DNA from: a virus
Strand: one strand, 5' to 3'
Virus record (IMG/VR): IMGVR_UViG_3300014501_000074
Coordinates: 1-23,845 of that record
Length of the DNA stretch: 23,845 bases
The position numbers and the translations under genes were made by a program. Every line of letters begins with the position of its first letter. Positions within the stretch are counted from its first letter, which is position 1. The notes beneath the pieces were generated by a model. The model was not told the DNA's origin and ran no database searches. It saw only the letters and a list, made by a program, of their open reading frames with translations. Positions 1,208 to 21,746 of this stretch are shown piece by piece.

Positions 1208-1392
1208 TCATTTGCGGCGGCTTTCCTCGGTTTCCTGGAGCCCCTCATAGGGGACTGGCTGCCGCACCGCTTTCTCGAACACGCGCGTTAGGGCCTGCCG
1301 CCCTTCTGGGGTGATGTAGACGTGGCTCTCTCCTGCCCCATTTCCGGCATTGTCTATCCACCCACGTTTAGCACACGCGGACATCGTGCTCT
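1208..1392 (-). pseudogene. 3' half of a winged-helix gene split by the tnpB element
   Basis: This piece encodes STMSACAKRGWI, then a spacer, then VYITPEGRQAL, the recognition helix and wing of a winged-helix protein with no N-terminal half. The missing half lies at 2807-2960. Both halves end at the same 9-bp sequence (AGAGCACGA on the minus strand), and joining there restores one frame of about 109 residues. The fragment could still be translated from the ATG at 1384 or a TTG at 1414, but would lack its first helices. It sits just upstream of the terminase small subunit, so the intact protein may have been a local regulator (inference). Confidence 0.65.
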
Positions 1393-1399
1393 CGCGATC

Positions 1400-1414
1400 A
1401 TTGCTTTTGCTCAA
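1400..1414. repeat. Left 15-bp inverted repeat of tnpB element 1
   Basis: ATTGCTTTTGCTCAA is exactly complementary to 2785-2799. The tnpB stop codon (1411-1413) lies inside this repeat, so the element ends within a few bases of its gene. Confidence 0.8.
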
Positions 1415-2730
1415 AGCGGAGCATCCACAACATTCGAAGGTGGCCCGTCGTGACTAACCAAGGCACCGGCCTCGATCCCGTCAGCGCGCGGCAAAGCTCC
1501 TCGCTTTCGCCCGAACGCGCGGGCAGGTTCGCGCCTTGCTGGCGCTACCCCGGCGGCTCTCACCACCGTCGCATCCCGAAGGATCACCCGGCTTGCGGCG
1601 TGGTCGCGATCATGGATCACGCCGCACCCTCCGCACGTCCAGGTGGCGATCCCAGGCCGAAGCCTGGGACCTATCCAACCGCAGCCTTCTTCGGGACAGA
1701 CGCCCGTGCTGCGCTGAAATCGTCCGATGACGCGCCATTCCCGACACGCCCATTCGCTCTTGTAGCGAAGCATCCGCAGAAGCTCGCCCAGACTGGCGTC
1801 GGCGAAGGACTTCGCCAACCTCGTCTTCATCAGACCTTTCAGGTTCAGGTCTTCGACCGCAAACCCCTCGAAAGTGTCCACCATCCTGCACGTCAGTCTG
1901 TGCAGAAAGTTCTGTCTCAGGTCGCGCACGCGACGATGTGTCTTGGCCAGTCGCATTACGGTGCGGCGGCGGTTCACGCCCCCTTTGCGGCGCCGATCGC
2001 GCTCCCGGTTCAAACGTCGAACGCGCTTTTCAGCCTTCCTGGCATAGCGCGGCGGCGCGATCTTCTCGGCGTCGGACCAAGCTGCCAACGCGGTCAGGCC
2101 ATGGTCGATGCCGATCGTGGGCCGGGTCGGCGTCTTGTATTCCTTCGGGTTGGCGTCGAACTGGATCGACACATGCCATCCGTCCGGTTCCTGGGTCAGC
2201 GCAACTTGTTTCAACGCCGCGCCCCGAGGCACCTCAAGCCCCCGCACGCGCACCCAGCCAATCTTCGGCAGACGCACCCGGCGCGGCTCGATCCGGCATT
2301 CGCGGCCAACGAACGAGAAGGCGTCGGCATGGTCATCGCGGCGCTTGAACTGCGGAATACCGGATTTCTTCGGCTTCAGCGGCGGCAGCCCCGAGGCCAC
2401 CCGCGCCGCGCTTCGCGCTTTTCGTTTCGCGTCGATGCGCTGAAACTCGACCTTGTTGCGGATGTAGTTCTTCAGTGTCCGATCGAAGTTCTGCGCTGTC
2501 ATTTGTGCCGCCCGATGGGGCAGCCCACGGAGCTTGTCGTCCTCTTTCAGCAACTTCGGCAGCATGGCGGACAATTCGGCATAGAAGACGAACTTTCCCT
2601 CGGCCTTCATCCGCGCGTTGTTCATCGCGGTGAACAGGTTCCAGAGATAACGGGTCTGGCCGCCGAACCGCGCACACGCCTTTACGCCAGCGCCCAGCAC
2701 CTTGCCCTTGCGCGCCTGGGTGACTGGCAT
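1411..2730 (-). CDS. tnpB: TnpB-like RNA-guided nuclease (IS200/IS605 OrfB), element 1
   Basis: About 439 residues from the ATG at 2730 (a GTG at 2784 would add 18). The RuvC-like catalytic set is complete: Asp in IGIDHG (~209), Glu in FAVEDLNLKGL (~293) and Asp in HDRDHAAS (~376). A zinc ribbon lies between the last two (CPEEGCGW, then CGGCGV). Known TnpB proteins use an omega RNA from the right end of the element to cut matching DNA beside a short motif. Here the omega RNA would come from the minus strand around 1650-1400. A 6-bp hairpin (2736-2750) sits just before the start codon and could limit translation. Sequence similarity to the second TnpB is low outside the motifs, so the two arrived separately. 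Confidence 0.9.
   Translation of the reverse strand: MPVTQARKGKVLGAGVKACARFGGQTRYLWNLFTAMNNARMKAEGKFVFYAELSAMLPKLLKEDDKLRGLPHRAAQMTAQNFDRTLKNYIRNKVEFQRIDAKRKARSAARVASGLPPLKPKKSGIPQFKRRDDHADAFSFVGRECRIEPRRVRLPKIGWVRVRGLEVPRGAALKQVALTQEPDGWHVSIQFDANPKEYKTPTRPTIGIDHGLTALAAWSDAEKIAPPRYARKAEKRVRRLNRERDRRRKGGVNRRRTVMRLAKTHRRVRDLRQNFLHRLTCRMVDTFEGFAVEDLNLKGLMKTRLAKSFADASLGELLRMLRYKSEWACREWRVIGRFQRSTGVCPEEGCGWIGPRLRPGIATWTCGGCGVIHDRDHAASRVILRDATVVRAAGVAPARREPARAFGRKRGALPRADGIEAGALVSHDGPPSNVVDAPL
1650..1669 (-). other. UUCG-capped hairpin inside the tnpB 3' region
   Basis: On the tnpB sense strand a perfect 8-bp stem (TCCCAGGC / GCCTGGGA) closes a TTCG loop, the extra-stable C(UUCG)G type. It lies about 240 nt before the stop codon, a distance at which omega RNA scaffolds of other TnpB systems begin. 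It may be part of the guide scaffold. Confidence 0.5.
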
Positions 2731-2735
2731 GGTCA

Positions 2736-2750
2736 CGCGAACAGTTCGCG
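2736..2750 (-). other. Hairpin next to the tnpB start codon (element 1)
   Basis: CGCGAA-CAG-TTCGCG is a perfect 6-bp stem ending five bases before the ATG at 2730. It could mask ribosome access or be a subterminal palindrome of the kind TnpA recognises in IS605 ends. The sequence alone does not decide which. Confidence 0.35.
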
Positions 2751-2784
2751 CAGCCGGAGCCGCCCATGCTGACCGATCAAGCAC

Positions 2785-2799
2785 TTGAGCAAAAGCAAT
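2785..2799. repeat. Right 15-bp inverted repeat of tnpB element 1
   Basis: TTGAGCAAAAGCAAT is the exact complement of 1400-1414. It is followed by seven bases and then the right copy of the 9-bp direct repeat (2807-2815). Confidence 0.8.
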
Positions 2800-2806
2800 A
2801 GGTCCC

Positions 2807-2960
2807 TCGTGCTCTTGTAGACCCAGGAGGGCGTGGATGGGGGATTCCTACACAAGGCCAGAAGCACCTCGAATTGCGCGTGCGTGGGAAGACGCTTACG
2901 CTTGCGCCTGCCTTGAGGTAAATCCCGCGCTCTTTGCCATCCCTCGATTGCATCGGCCAT
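2807..2960 (-). pseudogene. 5' half of the winged-helix gene split by the tnpB element
   Basis: The ATG at 2960 has a good AGGAG site. The product has a basic lead (GRRKRKR), then LPTHAQFEVLLALCR, a typical first helix of a winged-helix domain, and stops being gene-like at VYKST, where the 9-bp direct repeat begins. Past that point the frame runs 72 bases into the element and ends at 2733. Joined to 1208-1392 it gives a coherent protein (WVYKST then MSACAKRGWI). Function unknown; probably a small DNA-binding regulator. Confidence 0.6.
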
Positions 2961-4045: not shown

Positions 4046-4442
4046 CTTGCGGCTCGTCGTACAGAGCGCGGTAGATCGCCGCCGCGCCACGCCTCATAGC
4101 CGGTCCTGTCGCAGCAGCGCCATCTTGCGCCTCGCCTCTCGCTGCGCGTTCGGCCAATTCTGCCGGGTGCATAGGAAAAACTGGCGGCTCGAACACCGAA
4201 CGCCGGATGGCGATACCGATGCGGGATTGAAGGATCGCCGTTGCACGCGCCCATTCTGCGACCGTGAGACGGATGTTGAGTTGCCGGCTCATGTCCTCAG
4301 CGCAATCCTTGGCGACGGCCTGCGCGACCTCGTCAATCTCCGGGAGCCAGCGCTCAGCATGATCGGCTTTAGCTGCGGCGCGGATGGCCGCGTAACGCTC
4401 CGATTGTTGTAGATACTCCGATTGTTGTAGATAACGAGCCAT
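4038..4442 (-). CDS. Hypothetical phage protein with tandem YLQQSE repeat
   Basis: 134 residues from ATG 4442, preceded by AAAGGAA. Residues 4-15 are a perfect duplication of YLQQSE, made by an 18-bp tandem repeat at 4398-4433. The rest is helical, with a Trp/charge pattern (HAERWLPEIDEVAQAVAKDC) and a C-terminal Ala-rich part. No family recognised. The identical DNA copies imply a recent slippage event. Confidence 0.65.
   Translation of the reverse strand: MARYLQQSEYLQQSERYAAIRAAAKADHAERWLPEIDEVAQAVAKDCAEDMSRQLNIRLTVAEWARATAILQSRIGIAIRRSVFEPPVFPMHPAELAERAARGEAQDGAAATGPAMRRGAAAIYRALYDEPQDG
4398..4433. repeat. 18-bp perfect tandem duplication
   Basis: Two head-to-tail copies of CTCCGATTGTTGTAGATA, in frame within the N-terminus of the 134-residue protein. 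Because 18 is a multiple of three, copy-number change would add or remove six residues without breaking the gene. Confidence 0.9.
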
Positions 4443-6857: not shown

Positions 6858-7238
6858 ATGACAGACCGGGAAAGGGCGACGGGAATGGCCGGCCAGGTTC
6901 AGCTAGCCATCGGAAGCGGGAATTGGGGTCGGAGCGCCATAGTCGATATGCTGGTGGATTTCGCTTCTACGGCGCGGGCTGAAGAGCGCGAGCGGTACGC
7001 CGGCAAAGCCGAGGTCGAGCGCGACGACTACATGCACGCGCTCGACGACATCGCGAACATCATCCGCGCGGTAGACAATCGTTGCATGGTAGCGGATGGG
7101 CCGGTCACGCCAACGCTCAAGGAGATGACACAGGCAGAGATCAGCCGCATCTATGAGCTTGCATGCCTGCCGCAGCAACGCGAGGACGAACGACGCCGAG
7201 CCGAAAGCGACGCCGATGTTGGCGAGTGGCGCATATGA
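6858..7238 (+). CDS. Hypothetical helical phage protein
   Basis: 126 residues from ATG 6858, with AAAGGA nine bases upstream. Mostly helix, with a charged coiled stretch (STARAEERERYAGKAEVERD) and a C-terminal basic/acidic mix. TGA 7236-7238 overlaps the ATG of the HTH gene (ATATGA). No catalytic motif visible. Confidence 0.7.
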   Translation: MTDRERATGMAGQVQLAIGSGNWGRSAIVDMLVDFASTARAEERERYAGKAEVERDDYMHALDDIANIIRAVDNRCMVADGPVTPTLKEMTQAEISRIYELACLPQQREDERRRAESDADVGEWRI

Positions 7239-7429
7239 CGGGTGCAGAGCTAAATGCGTGGAGGAAAAGGATGGGTCTCACGGTCGCCGAGGCGGCCGAA
7301 GCCCTGATGATCTCCCAAACCCGCCTCATCGATAACCTCTACGTCCATGATCGTCCGCCCTCTCACCGTACCTCGGAGATGGCGATCCGCCTTGAAGTAG
7401 CAAGATTCAACGAGAGGGCAAAGTCATGA
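7235..7429 (+). CDS. Small HTH DNA-binding protein
   Basis: 64 residues. MTGAELNAWRKRMGLTVAEA continues AAEALMISQTRLIDNL, the layout of a lambda-repressor-type helix-turn-helix with the turn around LTVAEAAEAL. The C-terminus is short, with no dimerisation or protease domain, so it resembles a Cro or excisionase-sized regulator. Start overlaps the upstream stop and its own stop overlaps the next ATG. Targets could include the palindromes and repeated 10-mers reported here (inference). Confidence 0.7.
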   Translation: MTGAELNAWRKRMGLTVAEAAEALMISQTRLIDNLYVHDRPPSHRTSEMAIRLEVARFNERAKS

Positions 7430-7653
7430 AACTCCCCTACGCTCCCATCGGCCGCAGCTACAGGAATGGGTTCTGGTCCGGTGCCTTTGTCGGGAACGCA
7501 GCGGCCGTTTTCTTCCTGCGCCCCGCCTCATGGTTTACCGTCGTCGCACTTTTATTCGCTGCGGTGGTTCTCGATTTCAGGGCCTCGCTTTGGGAAGCCC
7601 TGGTTTGCGACGCGCCGCAGCCAGAACCCCACGAAGGAGGTGATGCTCGATAA
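7426..7653 (+). CDS. Small membrane protein
   Basis: 75 residues with two hydrophobic stretches, about 16-31 (WSGAFVGNAAAVFFL) and 36-52 (WFTVVALLFAAVVLDF), then an acidic Pro-rich tail. Start overlaps the HTH gene stop (TCATGA). Last recognised gene of the rightward operon. A two-span protein of this size could be a holin-like or inner-membrane accessory protein, but there is no lysis context here. Confidence 0.6.
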   Translation: MKLPYAPIGRSYRNGFWSGAFVGNAAAVFFLRPASWFTVVALLFAAVVLDFRASLWEALVCDAPQPEPHEGGDAR

Positions 7654-17882: not shown

Positions 17883-18938
17883 TTAAGCGGCGAGCGGCGC
17901 TAACTCCAGCCATTGCGCGCCTGGTGCCCCCATATCAACCAATACTTGCACAACCGCTTCAGCGGTTTGGGCAAGTTCATTATCGCTGGCTGCGTCGCTG
18001 GCTGCGTAGCTGGCTGCGCTGGCTGCTGCGCTGGCTGCGCGGGCTGCGCTGGCTGCGCTGGCTGCTGCGACGCTGGCTGCGTCGCTGGCTGCGCTGGCTG
18101 CTGCGACGCGGGCTGCGCGGGCTGCGCTGGCTGCTGCGCTGGCTGCGTAGCTGGCTGCGTCGCTGGCTGCGCGGGCTGCGTTGGCTGCGCTGGCTGCTGC
18201 GACGCTGGCTGCGTCGCTGGCTGCTGCGACGCTGGCTGCGTCGCGGGCTGCGCTGGCTGCGCTGGCTGCGTCGCTGGCTGCGCTGGCTGCGTCGCTGGCT
18301 GCGCTGGCTGCGTTGGCTGCGCTGGCTGCGACGCTGGCTGCGCTGGCTGCTGCGACGCGGGCTGCGCGGGCTGCGCTGGCTGCGCTGGCTGCGCTGGCTG
18401 CGCTGGCTGCGCTGGCTGCGACGCTGGCTGCGCTGGCTGCTGCGACGCTGGCTGCGTCGCTGGCTGCGTAGCTGGCTGCGCTTAAACTTTCGGCCCGCTC
18501 GCACTTAATGGCGGCTTCTTCCAGCGCCTGAGAGTGCTTTGCGGGCATCTTCATTGACGCCGCTATCCTAAGCGCTCGCGGGACTGTCTTGTTAATAGTG
18601 AGCAAGGAAAGGCGCTTCGCGAATTCGATATCGTCGAGCGCGCCCTTGCTGCCGAGTTGAGCTAGCGCGAGCCGTTCGAGACCCTTCGCGCGCGCCTCAT
18701 TGGACGACCAGCCGGCATCGTTCAGCGTGATTTTGAAGGCTCGCAGCGCTGGCGACACGCATGACGGTTCGTCGCCATGCGGTTCGCCTAGCGCAAAGCA
18801 CACGGCCGCCTCGACACACATCTGCCCAGCGATCGGGTTTCCGATGCCAAATACCAAGCCCGCGCGGACGATTTCCAGAACCTTGCGCGCAACCGTGATG
18901 TCTACTGGCGCGCCGTACTCTGAGCGACTTGTTACCAT
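17883..18938 (-). CDS. Alanine/serine-repeat phage protein
   Basis: 351 residues from ATG 18938 (a TTG at 18998 is the longer option). The N-terminal ~130 residues are a conserved phage domain (ITVARKVLEIVRAGLVFGIG, then GQMCVEAAVCFALGEPHGDE). The next ~165 are near-perfect (A-A-S/D/R/Y/N) triplet repeats, probably one long Ala-rich helix. A conserved C-terminal cap follows (EAVVQVLVDMGAPGAQWLEL). Such N-cap/repeat/C-cap proteins occur in many phages without known function. It sits between the annealing protein and exonuclease genes. Confidence 0.75.
   Translation of the reverse strand: MVTSRSEYGAPVDITVARKVLEIVRAGLVFGIGNPIAGQMCVEAAVCFALGEPHGDEPSCVSPALRAFKITLNDAGWSSNEARAKGLERLALAQLGSKGALDDIEFAKRLSLLTINKTVPRALRIAASMKMPAKHSQALEEAAIKCERAESLSAASYAASDAASVAAASAASVAASAASAASAASAASAARAARVAAASAASVAASAANAASAASDAASAASDAASAASAARDAASVAAASDAASVAAASAANAARAASDAASYAASAAASAARAARVAAASAASDAASVAAASAASAARAASAAASAASYAASDAASDNELAQTAEAVVQVLVDMGAPGAQWLELAPLAA
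17980..18481. repeat. 500-bp tandem repeat of GCTGGCTGC units
   Basis: On the plus strand the sequence is built from GGCTGCGCT and variants with GTC, GAC, GTA or extra GCT steps, in steps of 9 and 3 bases. All are multiples of three, so copy number can change without a frameshift. As the unit lacks stop codons in most frames, it creates long false open frames on both strands. Confidence 0.9.
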
Positions 18939-20432: not shown

Positions 20433-20457
20433 GGGGATTTATATACTTGACTACCCG
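20433..20457. repeat. Left 25-bp inverted repeat of tnpB element 2
   Basis: Perfect complement of 21722-21746. It reads GGGGATTTATATACTTGACT and five more bases, and ends three bases after the tnpB stop codon (20461-20463, minus strand). Confidence 0.9.
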
Positions 20458-20460
20458 ACA

Positions 20461-21624
20461 TCAGGCGGCCTCGCATATCTTTCCGGTCGCACGCTCGGGC
20501 CACTGCTCCACGTTAAGCGACCCCGGACCAATCCCGGCCCGGTGCAGAATCACCTTAGCTGCGGCAACATCGCGATCAAGGACACAGCCGCACGGGCACC
20601 GATGCACCCGTTCCGACAGTGTCTTTTTCTCGATGACGCCGCAATCAGGGCATGTCTGACTCGTGTATCGCGGGTCCACCTCGATCAGCTTGCCACCGGC
20701 TCTCTCGGCCTTGTAGCGGAGCATCGCGATCAGGCGACCCCAAGCGGCGTCGTTAACCTCCTTCGCCAGCATCCCACCGGCCAACCCCTTGATGTTGAGT
20801 TTTTCGACCGCGATCACGCCGAAGCGACGGGTCAGATCAGCGGTGATCTGATGCAGATGAGTATCCCGTGTCCGTGCGATATGCGAGTGCAGAGCAGCAA
20901 CTCGCGCCTTGGCCTTGCGGCGTCGCCGCGAGTTATGTTTGCATCTCGCCAGCGCGCGGGATCTGTGCCGCAGTTGGCTTTCGGCCCGGCGCGACGGCCT
21001 TACATTCTCAATCAACTCGCCGGTCGAGAGCGCGGCCAGCGTCGATATGCCTACGTCGATCCCGATAGCTGGCCCGTTGTGTTCGGTCGCGCACGGAACC
21101 TCGACGGTCAACAAGGCGTACCAGTGGCGTCCCTCGCGCTTGACCTTGCAAGCGATCGGCTCGCTAGGCAGCGCCCGATGAAGATGCAACCGGATACGCC
21201 CGATGCCTTTCATCCGCAGACGTTTGCCGGCAACCGCCCATCCGCTGCGATCAGAAAAGCCGAACGTCTTGAACCAATCGCGGCCCTTGAACCGCGGGAA
21301 GCCCGCCTTCAATTTGCTGACCTTAACGCGCCGGAAGAAGGCGGCAAACGCGAGGTCAACCTGTTTCAGCGGCCAACGTTGCAGCGTGACTGGATAGACG
21401 GCCCACGCAGAATCAGCGCGCAACTCGGTTAGGCTGCGATACTGGTCCTGCCAGGATCGACCTTTGCCGGTCCTCCGGTAGCAATCAATCCGCTCGGCGA
21501 GACTGGCGTTGTAAAGGTCGCGAGTGTGGGAAAGGGCCGCACGCAGTTGATCGTGCTGGGCCTTCGTTGGCAACAGTCGCACCTTGAACGTGAGGATTTG
21601 TGTCGGTACGCTGTGGTCAGCCAA
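20461..21624 (-). CDS. tnpB: TnpB-like RNA-guided nuclease (IS200/IS605 OrfB), element 2
   Basis: The frame is open to 21732, but a promoter inside it (21689-21716) and the TnpB-like N-terminus (ILTFKVRLLPTKAQ) favour a later start. The only in-frame near-standard start codon there is TTG 21624, giving 387 residues. Catalytic residues are complete: Asp in IGIDVG (~190), Glu in AVEKLNIKGL (~274), Asp in LDRDVAAA (~352). Zinc ribbon CPDCG...CPCGC. The N-terminal OrfB part and long basic helix (SRRRRKAKARV) are intact, so it should be active. Start codon uncertain. Different lineage from the first TnpB. Confidence 0.9.
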   Translation of the reverse strand: MADHSVPTQILTFKVRLLPTKAQHDQLRAALSHTRDLYNASLAERIDCYRRTGKGRSWQDQYRSLTELRADSAWAVYPVTLQRWPLKQVDLAFAAFFRRVKVSKLKAGFPRFKGRDWFKTFGFSDRSGWAVAGKRLRMKGIGRIRLHLHRALPSEPIACKVKREGRHWYALLTVEVPCATEHNGPAIGIDVGISTLAALSTGELIENVRPSRRAESQLRHRSRALARCKHNSRRRRKAKARVAALHSHIARTRDTHLHQITADLTRRFGVIAVEKLNIKGLAGGMLAKEVNDAAWGRLIAMLRYKAERAGGKLIEVDPRYTSQTCPDCGVIEKKTLSERVHRCPCGCVLDRDVAAAKVILHRAGIGPGSLNVEQWPERATGKICEAA

Positions 21625-21650
21625 AGCCGGGGTCCGTCCGGTTGCGGTCA

Positions 21651-21684
21651 GGGTCGGCGAAGCGTTGCAAGCGCTTCCCGACCC
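21651..21684 (-). other. Stem-loop in the tnpB leader of element 2
   Basis: GGGTCGG (21651-21657) pairs with CCGACCC (21678-21684), continued inward by GAAGCG/CGCTTC, 13 bp with a single unpaired base and a 7-base loop. It lies right at the predicted transcript start. It may be a subterminal structure of the kind TnpA binds, or a 5' stabiliser of the tnpB mRNA. Confidence 0.5.
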
Positions 21685-21688
21685 GCCG

Positions 21689-21716
21689 ATTATACCGGAA
21701 ACGCGGCGTCGATCAA
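21689..21716 (-). promoter_or_regulatory. Putative tnpB promoter (element 2)
   Basis: On the minus strand TTGATC (21716-21711), a 16-base spacer and TATAAT (21694-21689), a consensus -10. It lies inside the element, just past the 25-bp repeat, and would make tnpB independent of the phage operon. Confidence 0.55.
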
Positions 21717-21721
21717 GGGTA

Positions 21722-21746
21722 CGGGTAGTCAAGTATATAAATCCCC
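21722..21746. repeat. Right 25-bp inverted repeat of tnpB element 2
   Basis: Perfect complement of 20433-20457. The TGA stop of the small early gene upstream (21729-21731) is contributed by this repeat, so the insertion changed that gene's last residues. Confidence 0.9.

What the first reader, a model, noticed from the sequence alone, without database searches (positions are those of the whole stretch)
20433..21746. Second tnpB unit bounded by perfect 25-bp inverted repeats
The repeats at 20433-20457 and 21722-21746 are exactly complementary over 25 bases and enclose only tnpB, its promoter and a stem-loop. The left one begins three bases past the tnpB stop. A 25-bp perfect match by chance is negligible. 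Together with the first element this suggests a class of TnpB elements with terminal inverted repeats. The long repeats could also pair in the transcript, placing an omega RNA end in a duplex.
Basis: seen in the sequence. Interest (0 to 1): 0.8.

Follow-up and report, generated by a model that had tools for sequence, protein, structure and literature searches.

The report
tnpB riding in IS1595-type phage transposon
A gene for an RNA-guided DNA-cutting enzyme (TnpB) in this phage sits between the ends of a different kind of jumping gene (IS1595 type) than the ones TnpB is known to travel with in bacteria, which suggests that prokaryotic TnpB, like its eukaryotic relatives, can change transposon partners.

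Summary
A perfect 25-bp inverted repeat (20433-20457 / 21722-21746) encloses only tnpB, its promoter and a leader hairpin.

It is not an accident. 22 bp of each arm exactly match a terminal inverted repeat (TIR), GGGAWTTATATASWTGACTMCC, that I recovered from about 70 other IMG/VR contigs. There it bounds elements of 0.3-3.5 kb. 55 of these have an abutting 8-bp target duplication (54 exact), and 26 of those 55 carry an IS1595-family DDE transposase. So the element is best read as a transposase-less IS1595-family insertion cassette whose passenger is tnpB. The three closest TnpB homologues (69-74%) sit in different phage loci, two with the same TIRs at both ends and one with the right TIR only. 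All three have 8-bp duplications.

The window's first tnpB (1393-2807; 8-bp duplication CGTGCTCT) is a different IS1595-type lineage. A 95%-identical copy (L229) holds tnpB and an IS1595 transposase between the same ends.

The right TIR is predicted to fold with the end of tnpB into the last hairpin of the guide RNA, as reported for eukaryotic Fanzors. The finding's own element has no target duplication, so its last move is not shown. I found no published bacterial example, but the literature search was limited.

The parts
20434..21745 (-). transposase-less IS1595-family element carrying tnpB (E2); no target-site duplication visible at this copy
   Evidence: ends defined by the TIR family
20434..20455 (+). 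right terminal inverted repeat (3' side of tnpB), GGGATTTATATACTTGACTACC
   Evidence: exact match to family TIR; part of 25-bp perfect arm 20433-20457
21724..21745 (-). left terminal inverted repeat (5' side of tnpB), same sequence
   Evidence: part of perfect arm 21722-21746
20461..21624 (-). tnpB, 387 aa from TTG (same start context as ATG/GTG TCG GCT GAC in homologues); RuvC D, E, D motifs and CxxC...CxC zinc motif present
21643..21688 (-). conserved leader hairpin between promoter (-10 TATAAT at 21689-21694) and tnpB start
   Evidence: similar hairpin, different sequence, in L102, L018, L019, L024
20435..20542 (-). predicted omega-RNA scaffold: stem 20523-20542, covarying stem 20485-20522, terminal hairpin 20435-20484 that contains the right TIR
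   Evidence: prediction and covariation; transcript not shown
1393..2807 (-). first tnpB element (E1): transposase-less copy of an IS1595 transposase + tnpB element
   Evidence: 95% nt identity to L229 starts and ends exactly here; about 1.4 kb with the transposase missing
1385..1392 (+). 8-bp target-site duplication CGTGCTCT, copy 1 (E1)
2808..2815 (+). 8-bp target-site duplication CGTGCTCT, copy 2 (E1)

Best explanation
E2 (20434-21745) is a non-autonomous cut-and-paste-type transposon of the IS1595 (Merlin-like, DDE) family in which tnpB is the only gene. Its TIRs would be recognised in trans by an IS1595 transposase, and insertion would give an 8-bp duplication. tnpB is transcribed from its own promoter. 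Its mRNA 3' end folds into an omega-RNA scaffold whose last hairpin is made of the tnpB 3' end and the right TIR, so that the guide would begin outside the element and be renewed at each insertion. TnpB would then cut the matching empty or donor site and favour retention, as for IS605 TnpB and as proposed for TIR-borne Fanzors. Shown: TIRs, family identity, target duplications in relatives, a transposase in members with the same TIRs, and a transposase + tnpB pair between shared ends for the window's other tnpB. Inferred: trans-mobilisation of E2, omega-RNA boundaries, nuclease activity and its purpose.
For: Ends: exact TIR match, 0 expected. Transposase is IS1595: NCBIfam NF033547 E 3e-56 to 9e-62 and Pfam PF12762. 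Closest TnpB homologues L102 (73%), L018 (74%), L019 (69%) in unrelated loci with 8-bp duplications AACGAAAG, CTCCGGAA, CTCCCTAA; joining the flanks of L102 gives a plausible ORF end. A more distant TnpB, L144 (38%), lies between the same TIR type. E1: duplication CGTGCTCT, and L229 has tnpB (96%) plus IS1595 transposase (PF12762 E 5.7e-37) between the same ends; L320 keeps the pair at 63% and 59%. Hairpin of right TIR with tnpB 3' end: 15-16 pairs in E2, L102, L018, L019, L144, against mean 4.3 and 7 of 102 at or above 15 in other ends of the family; L018 changes both sides.
Against: E2 itself has no target duplication, and no IS1595 transposase is in the window (the record is a fragment). 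No element with an E2-type tnpB plus a transposase was found. L018 keeps only the right TIR; its left end is diverged. The hairpin is prediction; for L018, E1 and L229 it is not better than shuffled upstream sequence, and only four homologous E2-clade copies exist, so those counts are not independent. No guide target or TAM could be identified. All E2-clade copies come from metagenomic viral contigs.
Confidence: 0.88

Rival explanations
1. An ordinary IS605/IS1341-type tnpB element (no TIRs of its own) that inserted next to a TTGAC motif in the loop of a pre-existing palindrome GGGGATTTATATAC-TTGAC-GTATATAAATCCCC; the long repeat is the split palindrome.
For: A TTGAC motif stands where an IS605 TAM would, and the joined target would fold well as single-stranded DNA, z -5.2.
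Against: The same 22-bp sequence bounds dozens of elements without tnpB, with IS1595 transposase and 8-bp duplications, and it travels with homologous tnpB into unrelated loci.
Confidence: 0.03
2. A tnpB fixed as a phage gene (domesticated), its flanking repeats being regulatory or accidental in this copy.
For: Homologues at 54-61% identity (L003/L020, L004/L021, L022) sit in phage operons with no repeats; E2 lacks a target duplication.
Against: Exact TIR match with 0 expected, and target duplications in the three nearest homologues. It may still be true that this copy is now immobile.
Confidence: 0.06
3. The right TIR is itself the guide: the scaffold ends inside tnpB and the omega RNA guide is the TIR, so that TnpB targets other copies of the same transposon family.
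For: The covarying stem ends about 30 nt before the TIR; an 18-22-nt TIR is about guide length.
Against: The TIR is predicted paired in a terminal hairpin in L102, L019, E2 and L144, and the partner strand changes with it in L018; a fixed guide would give up programmability.
Confidence: 0.1

Closest known systems
IS1595 insertion sequence family (related to eukaryotic Merlin; PMC8101967)
   Same: TIRs with GG at the tip, 8-bp target duplication in relatives, same ends as elements with a DDE_Tnp_IS1595 transposase
   Different: E2 has no transposase; its only gene is tnpB; no duplication at this copy
Mobile insertion cassettes (transposase-less IS with a passenger gene; general knowledge)
   Same: IS ends around a passenger gene, moved in trans
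   Different: the passenger is an RNA-guided nuclease whose guide RNA appears to include the IS end
IS200/IS605, IS607 and IS1341 tnpB elements (PMC9956272)
   Same: TnpB protein, omega-RNA-like structure at the tnpB 3' end, tnpB-only layout as in IS1341
   Different: those have no TIRs and no target duplications (IS605 from general knowledge; IS607 also in the abstract of PMC6188088)
Fanzor elements of eukaryotes and their viruses (PMC3627910, PMC10711439)
   Same: TnpB homologue as sole gene between TIRs with target duplications; TIR predicted to be part of the guide RNA scaffold
   Different: Fanzors descend from IS607 TnpB with rearranged active site; here it is a prokaryotic TnpB in phage DNA with an IS1595-type transposon

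Membership tests
IS1595 family element (transposase-less) | TIRs shared with elements that encode an IS1595 transposase | tested here: met
IS1595 family element (transposase-less) | 8-bp target-site duplication | tested here: inconclusive
   absent at E2; present in L102, L018, L019, E1 and 54 other family members
IS1595 family element (transposase-less) | GG at the outer tip of the TIR (given for Merlin, PMC8101967) | tested here: met
   GGGATTT at both ends of E2
IS1595 family (autonomous) | encodes DDE_Tnp_IS1595 transposase | tested here: not met
   none in E2 or in the window; present in L229 for the E1 lineage
TnpB (RNA-guided nuclease) protein family | OrfB_IS605 and TNB domains, RuvC D/E/D and zinc motif | tested here: met
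TnpB (RNA-guided nuclease) protein family | omega RNA at the 3' end and guided cleavage | not testable with these tools
   structure predicted with covariation; no expression or cleavage data
IS200/IS605 or IS607 element | no TIRs, no target duplication, TAM-adjacent left end | tested here: not met
   TIRs present; target duplications in relatives
Fanzor-bearing element | Fanzor-type RuvC active site (DPG at RuvC1, shifted Glu) | tested here: not met
   E2 has GIDVG and a canonical AVEKLN; definition from PMC10711439

The most novel reading that the evidence does not exclude
Prokaryotic TnpB has been taken up by DDE/TIR transposons at least two or three separate times (E2 clade and E1/L229/L320 lineage in IS1595-type elements, Bosea plasmid elements with other TIRs), forming a third class of TnpB-bearing transposon in which the omega-RNA scaffold has absorbed the right TIR: a prokaryotic counterpart of what has been described for Fanzors.
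Probability: 0.6. Interest if true: 0.85.

Novelty: new variant of a known kind. Interest (0 to 1): 0.74.

Why it matters
TnpB is the ancestor of Cas12, and its biology is understood only in IS605/IS607 elements, whose chemistry (no TIR, no duplication, TAM-adjacent ends) sets where the guide starts. A DDE-transposon partner changes those rules: the transposase fixes the end sequence and duplicates the target. How the guide RNA copes is an open question posed by Fanzors, and these short phage and plasmid elements would make it testable in bacteria. It also means that tnpB-only loci (IS1341-like) should be checked for DDE-type ends before being called decayed IS605 elements.

Tried and rejected
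Hairpin-target model for an IS605-type insertion: rejected when the same sequence turned up as TIRs of tnpB-less elements. Exact 21-mer search of the E2 TIR in viral contigs: 0 hits because variants exist. Empty site for E2: RecE neighbour has no relative found by viral scan, and phage DNA similarity gives only an 86-bp RecB-like match in Burkholderia phages. Genome-wide relatives of the host could not be drawn for a virus record. The first inverted-repeat script missed E1 because of an off-by-one frame; corrected. TAM search in flanks by eye: no consistent motif; left as unresolved. Rfam and tRNA scans of the window: nothing. Actinobacterial IS1595 loci: the 12 fetched have no adjacent tnpB. 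IS1595 transposases of this group are nearly absent from 50,697 isolate phage records (3 matches, identity at most 37%).

Full report
OBSERVATION. The 25-bp inverted repeat is real, perfect, and the longest perfect inverted repeat in the window. It encloses a single gene on the - strand. That gene encodes a TnpB with OrfB_IS605 and TNB domains (NCBIfam guided_TnpB, E 6e-74). RuvC and zinc motifs are intact. The window is an IMG/VR virus record of 23,845 bases with DnaB, RecE, methyltransferase and other phage genes, plus a second, only 34% identical tnpB at 1411-2784.

HOMOLOGUES. In viral contigs the closest TnpB homologues are L018 (74%), L102 (73%) and L019 (69%); other full-length ones are at 61% or less. 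Those at 54-61% (L003/L020, L004/L021, L022) are packed into phage operons without repeats. The three close ones are in unrelated loci. L019 and L102 have the E2-like sequence at both ends. L018 has it at the right end only; its left end is diverged. All three have 8-bp direct repeats abutting the element: CTCCCTAA (L019), AACGAAAG (L102), CTCCGGAA (L018). In a joint test (flanking direct repeat plus inverted-end matches) over about 60 TnpB loci, with 2,439 mismatched-pair controls, the control maximum was 22. L019 scored 27, L102 26, L014 26, L038 25 and the window's first element E1 25. E2 (20) and L018 (20) did not exceed the controls: E2 has no duplication and L018 has a diverged left end. 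Joining the flanks of L102 over one copy of the repeat gives an ORF end...RRDIDERKETP*, overlapping the next start codon.

WHAT THE REPEAT IS. In 72 of them the sequence occurs in inverted pairs 0.07-5.7 kb apart (some pairs are spurious). 55 elements of 0.3-2.5 kb have matching 8-mers directly outside both ends, 54 exact; a few are the same element in two contigs. 26 of the 55 carry a transposase, which is IS1595 family by NCBIfam and Pfam. The others carry cargo; several read as DNA methyltransferases (sequence reading only) or show no gene. E2's ends match the 22-bp TIR exactly, at no other place in the window, with 0 expected. A more distant TnpB, L144 (38% identity), also lies between such TIRs, without duplication. 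IS1595 elements usually have 8-bp duplications and the DDE_Tnp_IS1595 domain, and the related Merlin elements have GG tips (PMC8101967).

THE WINDOW'S OTHER tnpB. A scan with E1's repeat found one true pair, L229. L229 and the window align at 95% over 1,395 bp from window 1393, and again over the 24 bp ending at 2807; about 1.4 kb in between is missing from the window. In L229 that stretch encodes an IS1595-family transposase (PF12762, E 5.7e-37) directly upstream of tnpB, plus a 146-aa ORF. The window copy is flanked by CGTGCTCT on both sides. L320 keeps transposase (63%) and TnpB (59%) adjacent. So E1 is a deletion derivative of a two-gene IS1595-tnpB element. Third, two Bosea plasmid TnpB elements (L014, L318; 45% TnpB identity to E2) have other GG-tipped TIRs and 8-bp duplications CTTACAGC and CTTTGTTA; no transposase was identified for these.

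MECHANISM. In the E2 clade the end of tnpB carries a stem whose pairs change on both sides between homologues, as expected for an omega-RNA scaffold. After it, the right TIR pairs with the tnpB 3' end: 15 (E2), 16 (L102), 15 (L018), 16 (L019) and 15 (L144) pairs, against a mean of 4.3 over 102 other ends of the TIR family, 7 of which reach 15. L018, whose right TIR has diverged, shows compensating changes (GTGCGG/CCGTAT for ATATGC/GTATAT). Swapping upstream and TIR parts mostly weakens the fold. Against: shuffling the upstream part shows clear excess for L102, L019, L318, moderate for E2 and L144, and none for L018 and E1. For Fanzors in TIR elements, TIR and TSD were predicted to be part of the guide RNA scaffold, with the RNA running about 15 nt past the TSD (PMC10711439). 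By analogy the guide here would begin outside the element and be renewed by each insertion. This is inference: no transcript, TAM or target is shown.

KNOWN OR NEW. TnpB in bacteria is described in IS605, IS607 and IS1341 elements (PMC9956272; PMC10711439). TIR/DDE elements with TnpB homologues are described for eukaryotic Fanzors (PMC3627910). Full-text searches for TnpB with IS1595, passenger genes, TIRs or DDE transposases gave no bacterial case (judged from titles, abstracts and the passages read). The library lacks most subscription papers, so absence is weak evidence.

LIMITS. E2 has no target duplication, so its own last transposition is not shown; about a fifth of paired-TIR loci also lack it. 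The record is a fragment. E2-clade copies come only from metagenomes.

Noticed in passing
L104-L223: A large family of IS1595-type elements in uncultivated phage contigs, many transposase-less with cargo such as DNA methyltransferase-like genes; the transposase is nearly absent from 50,697 isolate phage records.
   Followed up: partly
L124:7107-8583: Nested insertion: a 476-bp element (7127-7602, duplication CTTGAATA) lies inside the end of another element of the same TIR family.
   Followed up: no
window 21643-21688 (- strand): Conserved leader hairpin between promoter and tnpB start; similar fold with different sequence in L102, L018, L019 and L024. Possible regulatory leader.
   Followed up: partly
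L014, L318 (Bosea plasmids): TnpB elements with TIR GGCTATCCGKCATYSGAGGTTGATCC and 8-bp duplications CTTACAGC and CTTTGTTA; the right TIR of L318 forms a long perfect hairpin. Mobilising transposase unknown.
   Followed up: partly
L038:1458-2700: Another viral tnpB with TIR-like ends (GCCATGCGTGACTCCTTAAGCC) and a CCCGTCGA flanking repeat; family not identified.
   Followed up: no
L144:2751-3928: tnpB (38% to E2) between IS1595-type TIRs; no duplication, instead the inverted repeat continues outward by AGAAT/ATTCT.
   Followed up: no
window 17972-18482: Dense in-frame repeats of CGCTGGCTGCG-type units, about 0.5 kb.
   Followed up: no
window 4398-4433: Perfect 18-bp tandem duplication CTCCGATTGTTGTAGATA.
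   Followed up: no
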